A DNA stretch of 64,000 bases from Acidobacteriota bacterium (lineage in GTDB: Bacteria; Acidobacteriota; Holophagae; Acanthopleuribacterales; Acanthopleuribacteraceae): positions 62,001-126,000 of the forward strand of contig JAGQSC010000017.1 in NCBI GenBank assembly GCA_020439745.1, written 5' to 3'. The notes beneath the pieces were generated by a model. The model had not been told where the DNA came from and searched no databases. It worked only from the letters and a program-made list of their open reading frames with translations. Each line of letters starts with the position of its first letter. Positions within the stretch are counted from its first letter, which is position 1. Of the stretch, positions 26,576 through 36,007 are shown one piece after another. The translations under genes and the position numbers were made by a program.

Positions 26576-26604
26576 TTGACAACAAAGTAAGTGTTCACTA
26601 ACTT
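26576..26604 (+). promoter_or_regulatory. Promoter with TetR operator (site 1)
   Basis: TTGACA (26576-26581) and TAACTT (26599-26604) are 17 bp apart, a plausible sigma-70 promoter. Between and over them lies the 20-bp palindrome AAGTAAGTGTTCACTAACTT (26585-26604), 8 of 10 positions symmetric. The same sequence, 19 of 20 in reverse complement, recurs at 27358-27377 before the downstream operon. Binding here would block the promoter, so autorepression by the TetR protein at 26621 is inferred. Confidence 0.8.
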
Positions 26605-26620
26605 ATCTGTAGGAGGTCGT

Positions 26621-27337
26621 GTGAACCCACCCAGACTGAGTGCTGACGAACGTAGAGCCGCGATTTTGGCTGCCGCTATGCCACTGTTCGCTGTCCATGG
26701 ATTTGCGGCTACAACTACCAGACAAATCGCCGATTCAGCAGGCGTTTCAGAGGCATTGCTGTATCGGCATTTTCCAAGCAAGGAAGATCTGTACATGGCA
26801 CTCCACGAATTTTGCTGTGTCCATGCCGAGGTGTTTTCTCGCTTTATTGACGAAATCAAGCCAAGCACTTCGACCCTTGTGCACTCGGTTTACTACATCA
26901 TGAATTCTATTTTTCTACACAAACAAAACCATCCGGACGATCCCGTGAACAATGAACATTTTTGCCGCCTAATGATCAACAGTTTGCTGGATGATGGCCG
27001 GTTTGCGCGGATGTTCATCAAGGATCAAGTCATGCCGTGGATGGATTTGTGGGCCGCCAGCGCCAAGTCTGCGGAAGCGGCTGGAGACATGAATCCAGGA
27101 ATAGCCATTGAAAACCGATTGTGGTTTACACACCATCTGGCCGTCATGTTAGCGGTCAATCATTTGCCAGAGACCTGTGTTATCCCCTACGCGTGCAACG
27201 CCCAGAACCTGTGCGATGAGGCAGTTCTCTTCAGTCTACGTGGCATGGGCCTCACCGAGTCCGCCATTGCCACCCACTACAATCCAAGTGCTATTCAACT
27301 TTTTACAAAAAAGATCTTCGAGGCACTAAACCCTTAA
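26621..27337 (+). CDS. TetR/AcrR-family transcriptional repressor
   Basis: A 238-residue protein. The N-terminal ~55 residues hold the TetR helix-turn-helix: ERRAAILAAAMPLFAVHGFAATTTRQIADSAGVSEALLYRHFPSKEDLYMA. The ligand-binding C-terminal part is not recognised. The GTG at 26621 follows AGGAGG (26611-26616); an upstream GTG at 26591 lies within the operator and is unlikely. Matching palindromes before this gene and before 27410 indicate that it represses itself and the export operon that follows. The ligand is unknown, probably a lipid or hydrophobic compound moved by the RND protein. Confidence 0.92.
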   Translation: MNPPRLSADERRAAILAAAMPLFAVHGFAATTTRQIADSAGVSEALLYRHFPSKEDLYMALHEFCCVHAEVFSRFIDEIKPSTSTLVHSVYYIMNSIFLHKQNHPDDPVNNEHFCRLMINSLLDDGRFARMFIKDQVMPWMDLWAASAKSAEAAGDMNPGIAIENRLWFTHHLAVMLAVNHLPETCVIPYACNAQNLCDEAVLFSLRGMGLTESAIATHYNPSAIQLFTKKIFEALNP

Positions 27338-27354
27338 CCTTTTTTTGCGTATCA

Positions 27355-27380
27355 CTGAAGTTAGTGAACGCTTACTTCAG
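27355..27380 (+). promoter_or_regulatory. TetR operator before the RND export operon (site 2)
   Basis: The 26-bp palindrome from CTGAAG (27355-27360) to CTTCAG (27375-27380). Its inner 20 bp, AAGTTAGTGAACGCTTACTT (27358-27377), match the operator at 26585-26604 in reverse complement at 19 of 20 bases. It lies 30 bp before the start at 27410. Clear -35 and -10 boxes are not evident. Confidence 0.8.
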
Positions 27381-27409: not shown

Positions 27410-28153
27410 ATGTGGTTCTTTTTGTTGTTGATTTTGAATGAGGATGCCGCCCGTCGGGGATTGGAGATCGCCCAAGAGTCGGATCGCGCGAATGCGGGCT
27501 TTGTGTCTGAGTACTCCGAGATGGAGATGGTTTTGATCAATGCGCACGGCGACCAAACGGTGCGAAAGCTCACAACTGAAACCATGGAGATGGAAGACGA
27601 TGGCGACAAGTCAGTTTCTATGTTCCTATGGCCCGCGGATGTGAAGGGTACCAAGATGCTCACTTGGAGCCACAAGGTGGACGATGATGATCAATGGTTG
27701 TACCTGCCGGCATTGAAACGCGTGAAACGCATTAGTTCGAAGAACAAGTCGGGATCTTTTATGGGTAGTGAATTCGCCTACGAGGATTTGGGAAGCCAGG
27801 AAGTAGAGAAATATAGCTACACCTATTTAGGTGATGAGTCCGCTGAGGCCCGTGAGTGCTACAAGCTGGAACGCATTCCGGTCAGCACACGAAGTGGTTA
27901 TAGCAAGCAAATCGTTTGGATGGCTAAGGACCTGATGAACCCCGTGCGAATTGAGTACTACGACCGAAAGGGTGAATTACTCAAGGTCGGTGTCTTCAAG
28001 GATTACCGACAAGTAAATGGATTCTGGCGCGTCCACGAGATTGAGATGAAGAATGTACAGACATTGAAATCGTCGTTGATCAAGTGGGAAAGCCGGCAAC
28101 TTGGCCAAGAGATCGCGGAAGATCAATTTACGTCGGAATCACTGACAGAATAA
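27410..28153 (+). CDS. LolA-like outer-membrane lipoprotein-sorting family protein
   Basis: A 247-residue exported protein with a short uncharged leader (MWFFLLLILNEDA). The order of strands fits the LolA-like family associated with RND transporters: SEYSEMEMVLINAHGDQTVRKL, SVSMFLWPADVKGTKMLTW, DDQWLYLPALKRVKRISSKNKSGSFMGSEFAYEDLG, then KLERIPVSTRSGYSKQIVWM and PVRIEYYDRKGELLKVG. The fold is a half-closed beta barrel that carries hydrophobic ligands across the periplasm. TTAGGAG precedes the ATG. It is the first gene of the unit with the barrel protein and MMPL transporter, so it probably passes a lipid-like substrate between them. Confidence 0.87.
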   Translation: MWFFLLLILNEDAARRGLEIAQESDRANAGFVSEYSEMEMVLINAHGDQTVRKLTTETMEMEDDGDKSVSMFLWPADVKGTKMLTWSHKVDDDDQWLYLPALKRVKRISSKNKSGSFMGSEFAYEDLGSQEVEKYSYTYLGDESAEARECYKLERIPVSTRSGYSKQIVWMAKDLMNPVRIEYYDRKGELLKVGVFKDYRQVNGFWRVHEIEMKNVQTLKSSLIKWESRQLGQEIAEDQFTSESLTE

Positions 28154-28163
28154 AGGGATATTC

Positions 28164-29372
28164 ATGATCGGGACGCTTGTTTTTGCGCTCAGCCTGTGCG
28201 CTGGGGAGTGGGACGTCTATTTCAAGGCCGAAATAGCAACGGAACTGCGACAATTTGAGTCAGATGATGACATGCGCACCATCGACAGCGGGACGGCTGG
28301 GTTTGTGCGTTTGGAGACTTCGTTGAAACGCGGTGCCTTCAGCGTCGCTGCTCGGGGATTTGGACGGGTCGACCCCAAGGACCACGATCGGGATAACGCT
28401 TCATTTGAGGAACTTTTCTTGTCGATTGATGATCGCGGTTGGCGCGTACGGGCGGGCTATCAAATGCTGAATTGGACCGCTACTGAAGCTTTTCACCCCG
28501 CCGACGTGATGAATGCGCGCAATTTTGACAGTGATATTGAGAACCCGGAAAAGAAGGGTGAACTCATGCTGTCGGTGCGACGCCGATTACCTGTGGGTTC
28601 CATCGAAGCCTTCTACATGCCACGCATGGAGCGCCCCGAGCTTCCGGGCAGCCGTTCAAGATTGTCGTTTGCCCCACCTGGGTTTTCTACCTCTGAGCCT
28701 CTTTGGCTTGACGATAATGGGAATTTGGATACATCAGATTCGCGGTTCCAGTGGGGTTTGCGTTGGAATGCAGTGCTTGGGGACGCCGATCTGTCCCTAC
28801 ACTACCTGGACCATCAAGACCGACTGCAACCTGTCGTGGACGTGGACGTCACATCTGCCCTAGTACAGCCCTATTACCTGCCAGTCCACGAGTATGGAGG
28901 CACTTACTCACAAGTAGTGGGCGCTTCGATTGCGAAACTGGAAGTGGGGCACAAGGATTTTCAGTGGGATGCGGTACCTGATCACACCCAAGTCGCCATC
29001 GGATGGGAATACGGTTGGATTTCTGCCAATGGCGCCGCCCCAACACTGATTATGGAAGCACAGAACTATTTCGGGGTGAACGAATCAGAGCGTGCCGCCT
29101 TGGGGACCTTCCAGCGTGATCTACTGGTGGGGTATCGCCATGCGTTCAATGACATCGCGGGACGTGAACTATTGGTAACTGTGATTACTGACCTCGAACG
29201 AAGCCACGAATGGCTGGCCAATCTGCGTTACAGCCAAAGACTGAGTGATACCTGGTCGGTTTCGGCCGGACTGAGATACATCGACGCACCGCCGAAACGT
29301 ACGTTGGCCCAGGGGCTGGAACTGCTCGATGGTGCCAATCAGATTTTTTTGACTTTGAAGCGATTTTTCTAA
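28164..29372 (+). CDS. Outer-membrane beta-barrel protein of the export operon
   Basis: A 402-residue protein with a short leader (MIGTLVFALSLCAG) and amphipathic strands throughout (GFVRLETSLKRGAFSVAARGFGRVD; GWRVRAGYQMLNWTAT; TQVAIGWEYGWISANG; WSVSAGLRYIDAP), ending in ANQIFLTLKRFF, a C-terminal Phe as barrel-assembly signal. The Asn/Asp-containing early segment FHPADVMNARNFDSDIENPEKKGELM resembles the DUF1302-type barrels that accompany LolA-like and MMPL genes. The Cys near the end of the leader has Leu before it, so a lipobox is unlikely. It is probably the outer-membrane part of the transport route. Confidence 0.75.
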   Translation: MIGTLVFALSLCAGEWDVYFKAEIATELRQFESDDDMRTIDSGTAGFVRLETSLKRGAFSVAARGFGRVDPKDHDRDNASFEELFLSIDDRGWRVRAGYQMLNWTATEAFHPADVMNARNFDSDIENPEKKGELMLSVRRRLPVGSIEAFYMPRMERPELPGSRSRLSFAPPGFSTSEPLWLDDNGNLDTSDSRFQWGLRWNAVLGDADLSLHYLDHQDRLQPVVDVDVTSALVQPYYLPVHEYGGTYSQVVGASIAKLEVGHKDFQWDAVPDHTQVAIGWEYGWISANGAAPTLIMEAQNYFGVNESERAALGTFQRDLLVGYRHAFNDIAGRELLVTVITDLERSHEWLANLRYSQRLSDTWSVSAGLRYIDAPPKRTLAQGLELLDGANQIFLTLKRFF

Positions 29373-29384
29373 GGAGCTTTTGCC

Positions 29385-31751
29385 ATGACGCCACAAATGG
29401 AAAAGAAAACGTTATCGATGAAGACTGCAGACTTGATTCTGCGATTCCCAAAATCAGCGATGTTGCTGGGACTTGTTATGGCTGTACTCGCCATTCCTGG
29501 CGTGACGCGCCTGCAATCCGATTTCACATATAGAATCTGGTTCCGCGATGGCGATCCATTGTTGGAGACCTTTGACCGCTTCGAGCGTCGATTCGGCAAT
29601 GACGAAGCCGTGGCTGTAGTCATTCATAGTCCGTCGGGGATATTTGATACCGAGTCCACCACTTTGCTGCAAAACCTGACGAAGGACATGTGGCAAGTGG
29701 CTGAAATCATTCGTGTGGATTCATTGACGAACTACAACTGGACTCACGCCGAAGTGGTCGATGGGGAAGACGAACTCTTTGTGGATCCCTTGATACCCGA
29801 CCCGGATGATCAGGCATTGACGGAAGAGGTGCTCAAGGAGCGGGAATCCGTGGCCGTCAACCATGAGGTCATTCCCGGTTATCTTGTGAGTCAGGATGGC
29901 AAGACGGCAGTGATATTTGCGCGACTCAAACCTGCGATAGGCGGGTCTCCAGACTTCGAAAAAGTGATCCAAGGCACGCGAGAGAAAATCAAGGCGTACG
30001 AAGGTTTGGGTGATCATGAGTTCTATCTGACTGGCAATGCGGCTGTGACGCAGACGTTTAAAGAAGTGACCCAACAAGATATGCAAGTCATGGTTCCGGC
30101 ACTACTAGGTGCCATCGTGCTGTTCCTGTTGTTCTTCTTCAGACGTTTGTCGGGGATGCTGATGCCGTTAATCGTAATCGTGGCCAGCATATCCATCACC
30201 ATGGGTCTGTCTGGTTGGTTGGGCATCAAGATTAACAACTTGACGGCGATTGTCCCTCACATTCTCATCGCCATCGCCATCGCAGATGCCGTGCACATCA
30301 TGGTGACCTTTTTTCAGTTCCGCCAGAAAGGGTTGGAGCGCCTCGAAGCAATTCGTGGCACGTTGGTGAAGAACCTGCAACCTACGTTGTTGACCTCCAT
30401 TTCCACGGCGATTGGGTTCTTTTCGTTTGCCACCGCTAAAATTACACCTATTATGTCCATGGGGGTTCTGGCGGGCGTCGGCACCCTAATCGCTTGGGTC
30501 GTTACAATATTGGTTCTCAGCCCCATGTTGGCTTTGATCCCCATCAACATCAAACAAAAGCCGGAAGAGAAAAGAACGTTTGAGCCTTCGACTTGGAGCC
30601 TTTCCTACACTCGGTGGCTTCAACAGTGGCGTACGCCAGTCTTGATATTGTTTGCCGTGTTTAGCGTCATTTCGCTTTACGTAGCCTCCCGCAATGTGGT
30701 CAATTCCGACCCTTTCAAATACTTTGCGCCAAGCGTGCCCACCCGCGTGGCCAACGAATTCATTGAGGAGAACCTCGGCGGATCCATGGGCCTGGAAATT
30801 GTGGTTAACAGTGGGGAGAAAGACGGCATTTACGAGCCGGAATTCTTGAATAAGGTCGATGTGTTTCAGGATTGGTTGAACGAATTGCCCTATGTCACCA
30901 AAACCGTTTCGCTGGTGGATATCGTCAAGCAAATCAACCGCTCGTTACACAACGAAGCACAAGAGGCCTACGTGATTCCTGACGACCGGGGCTTAATTGC
31001 GCAGGAGTTGTTGCTCTACACCATGGGTTTGCCCCAGGGCATGGAACTCACTGACCGCATGACTTTGGACTACGACATGATCCGCCTGACCGCCATGTGG
31101 ACGCTACACGAGTCGCGTACCTCACTGGTCGAGATGAAGCGCATTGAAGCCAAAGCCGCGGAACTGGGTCTGAATGCGTATGTGACCGGCAAAACACCAC
31201 TTTGGCATGGACTGAACCCCTACGTGGTGGGTACCTTTATCGTTTCTATTAGTCTGGCGCTGGTTTTGGTTTCCATCTTGATGGTCGTCGTGTTTCGGTC
31301 GGTCCGTTTGGGACTTCTGTCCATGATTCCAAACACCGTTCCACTGATATTCGGTGGCGCCATCATGACGATCTTGAATAAGCCCCTTGATATTGGAACG
31401 GTGATCGTGGCCAGTGTGTGCTTGGGTATTGCCGTGGACGACACCATTCACTTCCTGTCGAACTTCAATCGGTGGCGCCAATCCGGGGCGGATACATCCT
31501 ATGCCGTGGCACAGGTGATTACCCATACAGGACCCGCATTGCTTGTGACCACAGTCATTCTGGTTGCCGGATTCGGGACCTTCGCTTTTGCATCATTCGT
31601 GCCCAATATCAACTTTGGCATTATGACGGCGATCATTCTCACGACCGCTCTCATCGCCGATTTCACTTTGCTTCCAGCGATGTTGTTACGAAGCCAGCCG
31701 CAGGAATCCGAATCGTCGGTATTACTGGATGCTGAAGGTCAAACGGCCTAA
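29385..31751 (+). CDS. RND/MMPL-family transporter
   Basis: A 788-residue inner-membrane protein of the MMPL/SSD type. TM1 at ~22-40 is followed by a large periplasmic domain, five helices (~235-400: VPALLGAIVLFLLFFFRRL, LMPLIVIVASISITMGLSGW, IVPHILIAIAIADAVHIMV, PIMSMGVLAGVGTLIAWVV), then TM7 at ~425, a second periplasmic domain, and five helices at the end. IAIADAVHIM and GIAVDDTIHFLSN carry the Asp-Asp/His proton-relay residues of the two halves. TAAGGAG precedes the start. This family moves lipids, hopanoids or other hydrophobic compounds, driven by protons. It is regulated with its two partner genes by the TetR protein. Confidence 0.92.
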   Translation: MTPQMEKKTLSMKTADLILRFPKSAMLLGLVMAVLAIPGVTRLQSDFTYRIWFRDGDPLLETFDRFERRFGNDEAVAVVIHSPSGIFDTESTTLLQNLTKDMWQVAEIIRVDSLTNYNWTHAEVVDGEDELFVDPLIPDPDDQALTEEVLKERESVAVNHEVIPGYLVSQDGKTAVIFARLKPAIGGSPDFEKVIQGTREKIKAYEGLGDHEFYLTGNAAVTQTFKEVTQQDMQVMVPALLGAIVLFLLFFFRRLSGMLMPLIVIVASISITMGLSGWLGIKINNLTAIVPHILIAIAIADAVHIMVTFFQFRQKGLERLEAIRGTLVKNLQPTLLTSISTAIGFFSFATAKITPIMSMGVLAGVGTLIAWVVTILVLSPMLALIPINIKQKPEEKRTFEPSTWSLSYTRWLQQWRTPVLILFAVFSVISLYVASRNVVNSDPFKYFAPSVPTRVANEFIEENLGGSMGLEIVVNSGEKDGIYEPEFLNKVDVFQDWLNELPYVTKTVSLVDIVKQINRSLHNEAQEAYVIPDDRGLIAQELLLYTMGLPQGMELTDRMTLDYDMIRLTAMWTLHESRTSLVEMKRIEAKAAELGLNAYVTGKTPLWHGLNPYVVGTFIVSISLALVLVSILMVVVFRSVRLGLLSMIPNTVPLIFGGAIMTILNKPLDIGTVIVASVCLGIAVDDTIHFLSNFNRWRQSGADTSYAVAQVITHTGPALLVTTVILVAGFGTFAFASFVPNINFGIMTAIILTTALIADFTLLPAMLLRSQPQESESSVLLDAEGQTA

Positions 31752-31756
31752 TCGAA

Positions 31757-34372
31757 TCAGGGGACGGCCGTGACCGACACGGCCGTCGCTTTGTACTGCG
31801 GACATTTCGATTGAGGATCTGTATGGGGTCCCGTCACTTTGTTGATCCCTGTTTCGGGGTGATGGAAGGAACAAAACACGGTGCCAGGAGCGACACGGTC
31901 GGCTCGTTTCATGACCAATGACGTGGTGCCCCATTGACTTCTGAGGGTCACCATGGTGCCGTCCTCCAGCAGACCTGCATCGGCTGGATTCATCTCAAGT
32001 ACATCCGCGCTTGCCATGGCAAGCTGAGGGGTCCTACGGGTCATGGACCCTACGTTGTAATGGTGTAACACCCTTCCTGTGATTAGCATCAATGGGAATT
32101 GCTCGTTTGTTTGTTCAGGGGATGGTAGGTAGCGCAAGGCTGTGAGCAGACCCTTGCCTCGCAGAAATCCGGACGCATGGACGGTAGCAGTGCCTGGATG
32201 ATCCTTATGAGGGCAGGGCCACTGTAACCCGTCGCCTTCCAACCGTTGATAAGAGACTCCTCCAAATAGTCGAGGCACGGCTTTGGCAATTTCGTCCATC
32301 ACCTCGGAGGGGTGTTCATAATGCCAATCTGCGCCTAACGCTCTAGCCGTTTCTTGAAAGATCCACCAATCCGATTTTGCATCGCCCGGTGGGGCCACTG
32401 AGGCGCGAACTCGTTGGATGCGCCGCTCGCCGTTGGTAAAGGTGCCGTCTTCCTCGTGTACACAGGATGCGGGCAGAACCAGATTCGCCCAAGGGGTCGT
32501 TTCGTTCAGGAACAGGTCTTGAACCACAAGGAAATCGAGCTGTTCCAACGACTCAATCACGTCCCTTGTGTTGGGGTCACTTTGCACCGCGTCCTCGCCT
32601 TGTAACCAAAGGAATTTGAGGGTACCCATCTTCGCGGCAGTAAACATCTCAGGTGACTTCAAACCGGGCTGTGCGGGCGGAAGGCTGCCCCATAGGTTTG
32701 CTAGTCGATGTCGTACCTCCGGGTCATCCATGGGTTGGTATCCGGTAAACAAATTGGGCATGCCCCCCATGTCGGCATTGCCCTGAACGTTGTTTTGCCC
32801 ACGCAGCGGCAGCATGCCCGCACCTGACCGCCCGATGCTTCCGGTTAACATGCCAAGGTTACATAGAGCCATCACCGATTCCGTTCCCTGGGTGAGCTCA
32901 GATAATCCCAATCCGTGTACAAAGAGAGTCGGACCTTTGAGCAATGCCGCAGCGCTGTGAAGATCATCAAGAGACACGCCAGTTGTTTGGGCGACATCGC
33001 TCAGGTCAACAGAATCCAGGTGGGCGCTGAATGCTTCGGTTCCTTCAACTTTTTCGTCGAGGTAGGCTTGATCCACCTGCTGCGCGTCCCAAAGGATTTT
33101 CGCCAAAACGTTCAACAGAGACACATTGGTTCCTGGCTTCAACCACAAATGGACATCTGCAAATTGAGTTAACTCGATGGCTCGAGGGTCGATGACAATC
33201 AAACGGGCGCCTCTTTTGACCGCTTGCTTGATGCGAGCGCCCACCACTGGGTGTGCTTCGGTGGGATTAGCGCCGGCAACTACAATGCAGGTGGCACGCT
33301 CGATGTCTTGATAGGAGGCGGACGCCGCGCCCGTTCCGGTAACCGTCCGCAGTGCCAGTGCTGTAGATGAATGACAAACCCTGGCACAGCAGTCCACGTT
33401 GTTGGTACCGATGATCGAGCGAAACAGTTTTTGGGCTAAGTAGGCAGACTCGTTCGTGGCACGAGAAGACGTGAGTATGGCTAGGCTGTTTGGACCATGC
33501 TCGGATTTTGCCTTCCGGATCTCATCGGCTAGCACTTCAATGGCGCGTGTCCAACTGATGGGTTTAAAGTCGTCACCATCCCGTAGGAGTGGGGTCGTTA
33601 AGCGATCTGGACTCGAAACATACTGACGGGCATAGTGGCCCTTCGCACAAAGATGACCTCTATTGACCATTGCGTCTGTAATGCCATCAATAGCCGCAAT
33701 CTGTCCGTCATTCACACCGACGCGAACCCGACAACCTACGCCGCAATAGCCACATACTGAATCGACGCTCACGTCATGCGGAAGATTGATGTCTACGATG
33801 GCACCAGTGGGGCAAAGCGGTGCGCAGGCGCCACAATAGGTGCAAGGACTGCCTGTGAAGCCGTCATTCACACCCAGTGCCAGCTGCGTTAGACCGCCAC
33901 GGTTCTGGACTGAGTAACAGTTCTGTCCCTGGATCAAATCACAGGCCACCATACACTTTCGGCAGACAATGCAAGCCTTCGGGTCGAAACCTAGATAACC
34001 ATCGAAATGGCGCCGATCCGTGGTCGTGATATTGATCCCATGCTCATGACACAGGCGTGCAAAGACAGAATCGGAAAGGACGTCGGACACATTTCTTTGC
34101 TCCAGCAACAACTCCAGAATCCACCTTCGCATTTGTCTGAGTTCCTGCGTTTGCGTGACAATGACGGAATCAGGACTAATGGGGGTGTGGCATGCTGCTT
34201 TCAAGCCCAACTGTTTCACGTCGACCAGGCATAACCGGCAACCGCCTTCTGGTCTGAGACCTTCAACATGACACAACGTAGGTATGTCAATCCCTGAACG
34301 CCTTGCTGCCGCAAGAATCGTGTCATCTTGATGAAAGCTGATTCGTTTTCCGTTGATGGTGGCTTCAGGCAT
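31757..34372 (-). CDS. Formate dehydrogenase, catalytic alpha subunit (Mo-bis-MGD)
   Basis: A 871-residue protein with the domain order of NAD-linked formate dehydrogenases: a plant-type [2Fe-2S] domain (Cys34, Cys45, Cys48 and a fourth in AACHTP), a His-Cys-type segment, two 4Fe-4S clusters (CIVCRKCMVACDLIQGQNCY and CTYCGACAPLCPTG), the CGYCGVGCRVRVGV cluster at the head of the molybdopterin part, and a bis-MGD domain ending in LVLPASCVHEEDGTFTNGERRIQ. The metal ligand is Cys (ARVCHSSTAL), not selenocysteine. It oxidises formate to CO2, electrons passing to the diaphorase subunit. The start at 34372 follows GGAGGCCATC; 34387 is an alternative. It overlaps the beta gene by 8 bp. Confidence 0.93.
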   Translation of the reverse strand: MPEATINGKRISFHQDDTILAAARRSGIDIPTLCHVEGLRPEGGCRLCLVDVKQLGLKAACHTPISPDSVIVTQTQELRQMRRWILELLLEQRNVSDVLSDSVFARLCHEHGINITTTDRRHFDGYLGFDPKACIVCRKCMVACDLIQGQNCYSVQNRGGLTQLALGVNDGFTGSPCTYCGACAPLCPTGAIVDINLPHDVSVDSVCGYCGVGCRVRVGVNDGQIAAIDGITDAMVNRGHLCAKGHYARQYVSSPDRLTTPLLRDGDDFKPISWTRAIEVLADEIRKAKSEHGPNSLAILTSSRATNESAYLAQKLFRSIIGTNNVDCCARVCHSSTALALRTVTGTGAASASYQDIERATCIVVAGANPTEAHPVVGARIKQAVKRGARLIVIDPRAIELTQFADVHLWLKPGTNVSLLNVLAKILWDAQQVDQAYLDEKVEGTEAFSAHLDSVDLSDVAQTTGVSLDDLHSAAALLKGPTLFVHGLGLSELTQGTESVMALCNLGMLTGSIGRSGAGMLPLRGQNNVQGNADMGGMPNLFTGYQPMDDPEVRHRLANLWGSLPPAQPGLKSPEMFTAAKMGTLKFLWLQGEDAVQSDPNTRDVIESLEQLDFLVVQDLFLNETTPWANLVLPASCVHEEDGTFTNGERRIQRVRASVAPPGDAKSDWWIFQETARALGADWHYEHPSEVMDEIAKAVPRLFGGVSYQRLEGDGLQWPCPHKDHPGTATVHASGFLRGKGLLTALRYLPSPEQTNEQFPLMLITGRVLHHYNVGSMTRRTPQLAMASADVLEMNPADAGLLEDGTMVTLRSQWGTTSLVMKRADRVAPGTVFCSFHHPETGINKVTGPHTDPQSKCPQYKATAVSVTAVP

Positions 34373-35948
34373 GATGGCCTCCGACACGGTCCAGAACCTG
34401 AACGAGATTCTGGGGAATCAACTGGCCGAACGCACAAAGGCTTGATTTAGAAATCCATAGCGCCTGCTCCTTCAATGCCAAAGGAGCGATTTTTCCCTTT
34501 TCGATCCATGAAAGTAGTCGGCGAGACCCCAGGCTACATGGCATACACTTGCCGCACGATTCTGCGGCCATGAACTGGACGAGATGATGAAACAGGGCTT
34601 CATAGTCTGTTCCATCCAGCAAGGCAACCACACCACCGTGGCCAAGTTGTATGCCGCGTTTTTGCATGGATTCAAATCCAATAGGCACATCAAAATCCGA
34701 TTTTTCGACCAGGGACCCCATGGGGCCGCCCAACAAAACACCTTCGAGAGATCGTCCCGCCCTGGCGCCACCAGCCGCATCGATCACTTCCTGGAGTGTT
34801 GTGCCAAATTCAACCTCGTAGATGCCAGGTCGGGCAAAGCCGTGATTGAGACACATGGCTTTGGTTCCTTTTGAGGTCTCCGTGCCCAATGACGAGAAAC
34901 GATCCGCACCCCAAAGTATGATCTGTGGCACGACGATGATCGTCTCCACGTTGTTGACCACTGTAGGTTTGCCAAATAGGCCACATTCCGTAGGATAGGG
35001 TGGGCGCAATCTTACTTCTCCCCGTTGGCCTTCGATGGATTGCAACATCGCGGTTTCTTCACCACACACGTAGCTTCCCATACCCGAAACGACTTCAACC
35101 TGCAGGCTGAACTCGCTGCCCATGACCGAATCGCCTAGGATGCCGGCTTGTTGTGCTTCAAGGATCGCTTGCTCCAAGCGAATGCGTGCCAATGGATATT
35201 CGGACCGAACATAAATCAGACCATGATGGGCACCAATCGCATACGCACACAAGGCCAAACCCTCTAGCACGGCATGTGGATCCTGTTCCATCAAGACCCG
35301 ATCGACGAAGGACCCGGGATCACCTTCGTCGCCGTTGACCACCGCAAATCTCTTGTCTGAACGGAACGCCGCGCAGGCTGCCCACTTTTGGCCCACGCGG
35401 AATCCTGCGCCGCCTCTGCCTCTAAGATCAGCCTGACTGAGCTGATCGATGATCTGTGACGGCGTCGATTGCAGTGATCGCTTCAAAGCCGTGTAAACCT
35501 CTGCATTCAAGGCCTGCTTCAGCGTTGCATGATCGCCATTCATGATTCGTCGGGTCACTGCAGGTGTGGAAGCCAGGCAAAATACGGGGCAAGGTGGTGC
35601 CTCTTCAGGATCTCGAAACCCATCATGGCCATTGGCAAGAACCGTCCGATCGAGGATCTGACCATTGGCCGCCAATGCGTTAGGCGCTTCGTAACAACGT
35701 CCCAGACAATAGACATGTCTTCCTAGATCGCGTTTTCCCTGCCTGGCCAGCCTACAGGATGTACCCTCACATATGCGCACGGCATTCGGGTCCTGGTGTA
35801 AGTCATCATAAAAGGAAACCAGACCGCGAATGTGTGCCCCTGACACGTTAAATTCGAGGGCTAACTCTTGCAGCGCCTTTTCGTCTAGGGAACCGTCTTG
35901 AATCAACCTCGCCTTGATGGCTGGTAGGATCGCCTGTTGCACGTGCAT
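34365..35948 (-). CDS. NAD-dependent formate dehydrogenase diaphorase subunit (NuoE-NuoF fusion)
   Basis: A 527-residue protein. The N-terminal ~130 residues are a NuoE-like thioredoxin-fold [2Fe-2S] domain (ICEGTSCRLARQGKRDLG, then YCLGRCYEAPNAL). A NuoF-like part follows with the NADH/FMN sites GRGGAGFRVGQKWAAC and FAVVNGDEGDPGSFVDRVLMEQDPH, an SLBB segment, and a C-terminal 4Fe-4S site ESCGKCMPCSLGSRRLL. In Cupriavidus-type enzymes these are separate FdsG and FdsB; here they are one protein. It passes electrons from formate to NAD+. The start at 35948 has AGAGGTGATCCAC before it; an ATG 13 codons earlier has no ribosome site. No fdhD-type sulfurtransferase gene lies in the window. Confidence 0.92.
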   Translation of the reverse strand: MHVQQAILPAIKARLIQDGSLDEKALQELALEFNVSGAHIRGLVSFYDDLHQDPNAVRICEGTSCRLARQGKRDLGRHVYCLGRCYEAPNALAANGQILDRTVLANGHDGFRDPEEAPPCPVFCLASTPAVTRRIMNGDHATLKQALNAEVYTALKRSLQSTPSQIIDQLSQADLRGRGGAGFRVGQKWAACAAFRSDKRFAVVNGDEGDPGSFVDRVLMEQDPHAVLEGLALCAYAIGAHHGLIYVRSEYPLARIRLEQAILEAQQAGILGDSVMGSEFSLQVEVVSGMGSYVCGEETAMLQSIEGQRGEVRLRPPYPTECGLFGKPTVVNNVETIIVVPQIILWGADRFSSLGTETSKGTKAMCLNHGFARPGIYEVEFGTTLQEVIDAAGGARAGRSLEGVLLGGPMGSLVEKSDFDVPIGFESMQKRGIQLGHGGVVALLDGTDYEALFHHLVQFMAAESCGKCMPCSLGSRRLLSWIEKGKIAPLALKEQALWISKSSLCAFGQLIPQNLVQVLDRVGGHHA

Positions 35949-36007
35949 GTGGATCACCTCTATTGGTACACCTAAAACATGAGTCATGAGTCATGCTTTT
36001 GCAAGTG

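What the first reader, a model, noticed from the sequence alone, without database searches (positions are those of the whole stretch)
26585..27380. Paired, almost identical operators define a TetR regulon
AAGTAAGTGTTCACTAACTT at 26585-26604 and AAGTTAGTGAACGCTTACTT at 27358-27377 are reverse complements at 19 of 20 bases. One overlaps the probable promoter of the TetR gene, the other lies 30 bp before the LolA-like/barrel/MMPL genes. This predicts autorepression and repression of the export operon, and gives a searchable motif for other members of the regulon.
Basis: partly seen in the sequence, partly recalled or inferred. Interest (0 to 1): 0.5.

Follow-up and report, generated by a model that had tools for sequence, protein, structure and literature searches.

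The report
Two operators of a TetR-controlled exporter
Two near-identical 20-base palindromes, one in the promoter of a TetR-type repressor gene and one just before the exporter genes it sits beside, look like genuine repressor binding sites kept across related bacteria: an ordinary self-regulated pump switch, documented in a poorly studied lineage.

Summary
Each is itself a near-palindrome. In the 5.1-Mb genome the core pattern occurs at three places: these two, and one inside a coding frame.

Comparative evidence supports the operator reading. All five family relatives with this TetR carry the palindrome upstream of tetR. Four share tetR-lolA-barrel-MMPL and also carry it before lolA. In the fifth, G004, tetR heads a different RND-pump operon, yet the lolA-barrel-MMPL genes on another contig still carry the site, within a TTGACC-17-TAGCTT promoter-like sequence. 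In other families of the phylum, one clade of TetRs beside MMPL/LolA-like modules has the same kind of site; TetRs with other recognition helices do not.

Best reading: a local TetR repressor controls itself and the export operon. Binding, repression and ligand are inferred; how the second site acts is unclear. The predicted wider regulon was not found in this genome. It is a new member of a known kind; no printed motif was found.

The parts
26576..26604 (+). promoter-like sequence of tetR: TTGACA (26576-26581), 17-bp spacer, TAACTT (26599-26604)
   Evidence: TTGnnn-17-TAnnnT in 6 of 6 family genomes; not reported by the stricter scan
26585..26604 (.). O1, near-palindromic operator AAGTAAGTGTTCACTAACTT in the spacer and -10 of the tetR promoter
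26621..27337 (+). tetR: TetR-family regulator, 238 aa, GTG start
   Evidence: PF00440 70.1 bits against a cut-off of 24; orthologues at 42-72% identity in five relatives
27358..27377 (.). O2, near-palindromic operator AAGTTAGTGAACGCTTACTT, 32 bp before the lolA-like gene
27410..28153 (+). LolA-like protein gene ('outer membrane lipoprotein-sorting protein')
   Evidence: PF17131 216.9 bits against 30; conserved in the operon of four relatives and in G004 on another contig
28164..29372 (+). outer-membrane barrel-like protein gene (weak DUF1302 match)
   Evidence: PF06980 18.0 bits, below its cut-off of 23.2; conserved with the module
29385..31751 (+). MMPL/RND-type transporter gene
   Evidence: PF03176 108.8 bits against 20.5; TIGR00921 (HAE3) 176.8, below its cut-off of 351.9

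Best explanation
The two palindromes are operators of the TetR protein encoded between them. A TetR dimer on O1 sits in the spacer and -10 of the tetR promoter and shuts off its own gene. A dimer on O2 blocks initiation at, or read-through into, lolA-barrel-MMPL. When a small, probably hydrophobic ligand (unknown; likely related to what the MMPL/LolA-like/barrel system moves across the envelope) binds the TetR, both sites are released and regulator and exporter are made together. Shown: the sites, their rarity in the genome, their conservation with gene order, their position in a promoter-like sequence at tetR, and their presence before the module when it lies apart from tetR. Inferred: TetR binding, repression rather than activation, how O2 acts, and the ligand.
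For: Near-identity beyond chance. Only two genomic places match exactly; of three matching the relaxed core, two are these and one is coding. With a pattern taken only from the window, the site is found upstream of tetR in 5 of 5 relatives that have this TetR and before lolA in 4 of 4 that have the operon, shuffle p 0.000-0.013 each. In the six 3.7-kb tetR loci every match within 5 mismatches lies at or overlaps these two positions, except one inside the window's tetR gene. O1 fills the 17-bp spacer in 6 of 6. In G004 the module lies on another contig with no TetR found in the 11.5 kb fetched, and keeps the site in a promoter-like sequence. In other families of the phylum, 10 of 11 module TetRs with an ALYRHF recognition helix have such a site against 0 of 12 with other helices, plus one more found later (L172).
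Against: No binding data. Around O2 the best promoter-like pair in the window matches only 6 of 12, and none of the four relatives has a convincing pair there, so control of lolA from O2 itself is less certain than control of tetR from O1. The window's TetR family and the other motif-bearing TetRs are separate clades in the tree, so their shared motif may be convergence through a similar helix. The helix classes were drawn after seeing the sites, and 5 of the 11 come from one genus.
Confidence: 0.82

Rival explanations
1. Only O1 is a true repression site (autoregulation). O2 is a roadblock or secondary site, and lolA-barrel-MMPL is mainly expressed by read-through from the tetR promoter, so one promoter effectively controls a four-gene transcript.
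For: All four genes lie on the same strand with short gaps. O1 sits in a clear promoter-like sequence while O2 does not. In the 23 phylum loci with TetR directly upstream of MMPL the TetR gene comes first.
Against: O2 is conserved in 4 of 4 relatives with the operon. When the module lies apart from tetR (G004) its site is in a promoter-like sequence, showing that the module can have its own controlled promoter.
Confidence: 0.3
2. The sites belong to another regulator (a TetR paralogue elsewhere in the genome), and the neighbouring TetR is one of its targets.
For: The own genome has further TetR genes (9 TetR matches in all), and TetR motifs can overlap between paralogues (general knowledge).
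Against: In the family the site occurs upstream of every tetR orthologue examined. In the phylum it tracks the helix type of the adjacent TetR. The five other own-genome TetR genes examined have 8-9 mismatches at best.
Confidence: 0.06
3. The regulator is an activator at one or both sites.
For: A few TetR-family members activate; AtrA did so in PMC3511530 (passages).
Against: O1 overlaps spacer and -10, where a bound protein would exclude polymerase (mechanism from general knowledge).
Confidence: 0.06
4. The pair are terminal inverted repeats of a small mobile element carrying tetR.
For: They are in inverted orientation and flank one gene.
Against: No other copy in the genome. Each arm is itself palindromic. 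Both positions are kept with drift in relatives, and the site occurs before the module in G004 without tetR. No flanking target duplication was seen by eye.
Confidence: 0.02

Closest known systems
TetR/AcrR-type local efflux repressors with operators at their own and the pump promoter (TetR-TetA type, general knowledge; PMC3511530, passages)
   Same: Small TetR protein, palindromic operators at its own promoter and before the exporter genes, dedicated to a neighbouring pump.
   Different: Here tetR and the pump genes are in tandem, not divergent; the pump is an MMPL/LolA-like/barrel set; ligand and binding untested.
AmeABCD of Castellaniella defragrans (PMC6394551, abstract and passages)
   Same: DUF1302 outer-membrane protein, LolA-superfamily periplasmic protein and HAE3-type RND transporter made together; deletion lowers tolerance to monoterpenes.
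   Different: Four proteins including AmeC, which has no counterpart in this operon; different gene order; the window's transporter falls below the HAE3 cut-off. No regulator is described in the passages seen.
Porphyromonas gingivalis PG1175-PG1181 and the similar Prevotella operons (PMC10434189, PMC10470040, passages)
   Same: TetR/AcrR regulator with MMPL transporter and outer membrane lipoprotein-sorting protein; the whole set, TetR included, changes together (13- to 136-fold up in low iron).
   Different: Prevotella operons also hold ABC transporter genes. The one Prevotella TetR examined here (P. nigrescens plasmid) has another recognition helix and no such operator.
Thalassolituus oleivorans TOL_3187/TOL_3188 (PMC6304351, passages)
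   Same: A protein with MMPL and LolA-like domains next to a predicted porin, induced by long-chain alkane.
   Different: MMPL and LolA-like are in one protein there; the passages read name no TetR for it.
SlmA (nucleoid occlusion factor, TetR family; site GTGAGTACTCAC, PMC3116907, passage)
   Same: Half-site GTnAGT; a SlmA model is among the better NCBIfam matches of the window's TetR (44.8 bits). The similarity of the recognition helices (SEAALYRHFPSK) is recalled.
   Different: Spacing between half-sites differs, the model cut-off (120) is not met, and the genomic sites are two at one locus, not dozens.

Membership tests
TetR family of transcriptional regulators | N-terminal TetR_N helix-turn-helix domain | tested here: met
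   PF00440 70.1 bits against 24
TetR family of transcriptional regulators | binds a palindromic operator as a dimer | not testable with these tools
   palindromes present and conserved; binding not measured
TetR family of transcriptional regulators | ligand-binding all-helical C-terminal domain | tested here: inconclusive
   single-sequence model all-helical but pLDDT 46; no Pfam match for the C-terminal part
SlmA | NCBIfam SlmA model above its cut-off | tested here: not met
   44.8 bits against 120
MMPL family | Pfam MMPL model above its cut-off | tested here: met
   PF03176 108.8 bits against 20.5
HAE3 subfamily of RND transporters | TIGR00921 above its cut-off | tested here: not met
   176.8 bits against 351.9
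AmeABCD-type exporter | four-gene cassette with two periplasmic proteins | tested here: not met
   three genes in the order lolA-barrel-MMPL, no AmeC counterpart between them
LolA_like (PF17131) | model above its cut-off | tested here: met
   216.9 bits against 30
DUF1302 (PF06980) | model above its cut-off | tested here: not met
   18.0 bits against 23.2

The most novel reading that the evidence does not exclude
One operator class (roughly RTNAGTGnnCACTNAY) together with one recognition-helix type marks a phylum-wide group of TetRs devoted to MMPL/LolA-like envelope exporters. The operator stays on the exporter even where the regulator gene sits with another pump (G004), so the regulon is defined by a shared, unidentified envelope-active ligand and not by gene neighbourhood. 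The module has elsewhere recruited unrelated TetRs with other operators.
Probability: 0.4. Interest if true: 0.45.

Novelty: new member of a known kind. Interest (0 to 1): 0.35.

Why it matters
MMPL/LolA-like/barrel modules are common (the LolA-like profile matches in 65 of 297 sampled genomes of the phylum; relatives also lie on plasmids of other phyla), but what they carry is mostly unknown. A well-supported operator gives a ready reporter for finding the inducing compound, and so a lead to the exported or sensed molecule.

Tried and rejected
A more degenerate pattern gave 21-46 places per genome, fewer than its own reversed control (49-89), so it cannot resolve weak sites. The genome-contig scan with the TetR found one distant protein (L037, 25%), with no module match nearby. 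Single-sequence structure prediction of the TetR was too poor for a fold search (pLDDT 46). Plasmid relatives of the lolA-like gene: six regions opened and one extended upstream. The two TetRs found (Photobacterium, Prevotella) have other helices and no such operator. Literature searches for a printed form of the motif gave no regulator paper; a DesT search was read only as a listing. The mobile-element idea was rejected (see rivals). The strict promoter scan reported no promoter; the -35/-10 assignment rests and on conservation.

Rows left out or moved: of the 80 places other than the window's listed, 51 were fetched and 29 were not examined. Of the 24 TetRs found in those 51, L140 was dropped as too short and re-fetched as L172, and L139 is not beside an MMPL gene but was counted among the 12 without the motif. 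L110 (ALYRHF helix) misses the 5-mismatch limit with a decayed-looking site (6 mismatches). The 13 control TetRs were taken as not beside a module without a check of their wider surroundings; one of them (L181) reaches 5 mismatches.

The window's lineage is not named by any search. From genome sizes and class mates I guess Acanthopleuribacteraceae (Acidobacteriota, Holophagae); this is recall and unverified.

Full report
OBSERVATION. The two 20-mers are at the stated places and agree at 19 of 20 bases on opposite strands. No other place in the window matches within 3 mismatches, and 0 of 100 shuffles gave such a pair. Each is a near-palindrome with GTnAG half-sites. The tetR frame allows an earlier GTG at 26591, but the start with a ribosome-binding site is GTG 26621; the aligned relatives begin at about the same point. 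O1 then lies 16 bp before the start, within TTGACA-17-TAACTT (26576-26604). O2 lies in the 72-bp gap between tetR and the lolA-like gene, 32 bp before its start.

GENES. 26621-27337 is a TetR-family regulator (PF00440 70.1 bits). 27410-28153 is LolA_like (PF17131 216.9 bits). 28164-29372 is a barrel-like protein with a sub-threshold DUF1302 match. 29385-31751 is an MMPL/RND transporter (PF03176 108.8 bits). TIGR00921 (HAE3) is the best NCBIfam match of the transporter, below its cut-off; the TetR matches no named NCBIfam model above cut-off.

RARITY. In the 5.1-Mb genome the exact pattern is found only at O1 and O2. Allowing 3 mismatches adds four places, all inside long open frames, fewer than the reversed control. 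The core GTNAGYRNNYRCTNAC occurs at three places: O1, O2 and one inside a coding frame. The genome is about 97% complete, in 65 contigs.

FAMILY FOOTPRINT. Of six family relatives searched, five (G001, G003, G004, G005, G006) have the TetR at 42-72% identity; G002 has only weak matches. Four have the same operon beside it. A pattern taken only from the window's sites finds palindromes at all five tetR-upstream and all four tetR-lolA positions, with 3-5 mismatches and shuffle p 0.000-0.013 each. The near-identity of O1 and O2 is special to the window; what is conserved is the palindromic core (positions 4, 6, 7 and 8 of each half are nearly fixed in 12 family sites). In all six genomes O1 lies in a TTGnnn-17-TAnnnT sequence: in three it covers the whole -10, and in three it runs from the last 2 bp of the -35 to the first base of the -10.

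A NATURAL TEST. In G004 the tetR gene is first in a different operon: an outer-membrane-factor-like protein, a fusion-protein-like protein and an RND pump (these names are my reading of the translations, no family search was run). Its lolA-barrel-MMPL genes lie on another contig with no TetR found within the 11.5 kb fetched, yet they carry AGGTGAGTGCTCACTAGCTT (3 mismatches; the next best place in that 3.7-kb locus has 6) in a TTGACC-17-TAGCTT promoter-like sequence. A search of G004 with a pattern shaped on these sites finds only them and one place inside a coding frame; that pattern was chosen after seeing the sites.

BEYOND THE FAMILY. The LolA-like profile matches in 65 of 297 sampled genomes of the phylum. 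I fetched 51 of the 80 places other than the window's. A TetR gene was found in 24 of 51, in 23 directly upstream of MMPL. Of those with enough upstream sequence, 10 of 11 with an ALYRHF helix have the window-type site (up to 5 mismatches) just upstream; 0 of 12 with other helices (SKG..YYYF, GRQSLYDTF and others) do. Fisher p is 9.6e-6, which ignores relatedness and the post hoc classes. One further TetR (L172, SLYRH) has it at 3 mismatches; of 13 other TetRs, 1 reaches 5 mismatches. In a tree the motif-bearing TetRs form one supported group (95/94) that also holds L110 and L140, both labelled 'no' when the tree was built; the window's family is a separate, well-supported group (100/99). Whether their common operator is inherited or follows from the similar recognition helix is open. 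SlmA's site GTGAGTACTCAC (PMC3116907, passage) shares the half-site; the similarity of its helix is recalled.

MECHANISM. Most likely a TetR dimer on O1 and O2 represses tetR and the exporter genes until a ligand releases it. How O2 acts is the weakest link: no convincing promoter was found around O2 in the window or in the four relatives. It may cover an unusual promoter or block read-through from the tetR promoter. The cargo is unknown. Related sets are tied to tolerance of monoterpenes (PMC6394551, abstract and passages), long-chain alkane growth (PMC6304351, passages) and low iron or hemin (PMC10434189, PMC10470040, passages), so it may differ between lineages.

VERDICT. A real, conserved pair of operators for a local TetR/exporter switch: ordinary in kind, well supported by comparison, useful as a reporter for an unknown ligand. 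No printed form of the motif was found in the held library.

Noticed in passing
L168 (G001:C22:221825-221842): A close match, GTTAGTGTACACTAGCCT, lies between two divergent genes of the sister species, one pseudouridine-synthase-like and one small lipoprotein-like by eye: a possible extra site or chance.
   Followed up: partly
L096-L146: MMPL/LolA-like modules across the phylum carry TetRs of at least three recognition-helix types directly upstream, as if the module recruited its repressor repeatedly.
   Followed up: partly
L100, L103 upstream of the TetR gene: Another palindrome, TTGACCGATCGGTC or near it, lies upstream of the GRQSLYDTF/GRQSMYDTF-type TetRs.
   Followed up: no
L173, L176 (own genome): Other TetR genes of this genome have their own palindromes upstream, such as ATTTTGAACATGTTCAAAAC and CATACATTCGTGAATGTATA.
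   Followed up: no
L160, L161, L162: Paralogous modules in G005, G006 and G003 run MMPL-lolA-barrel with a different TetR after the barrel and no window-type site.
   Followed up: no
window 31757-35987, - strand: Two genes that read like a formate-dehydrogenase catalytic subunit and a NuoF-like subunit lie on the opposite strand just beyond the exporter (by eye).
   Followed up: no
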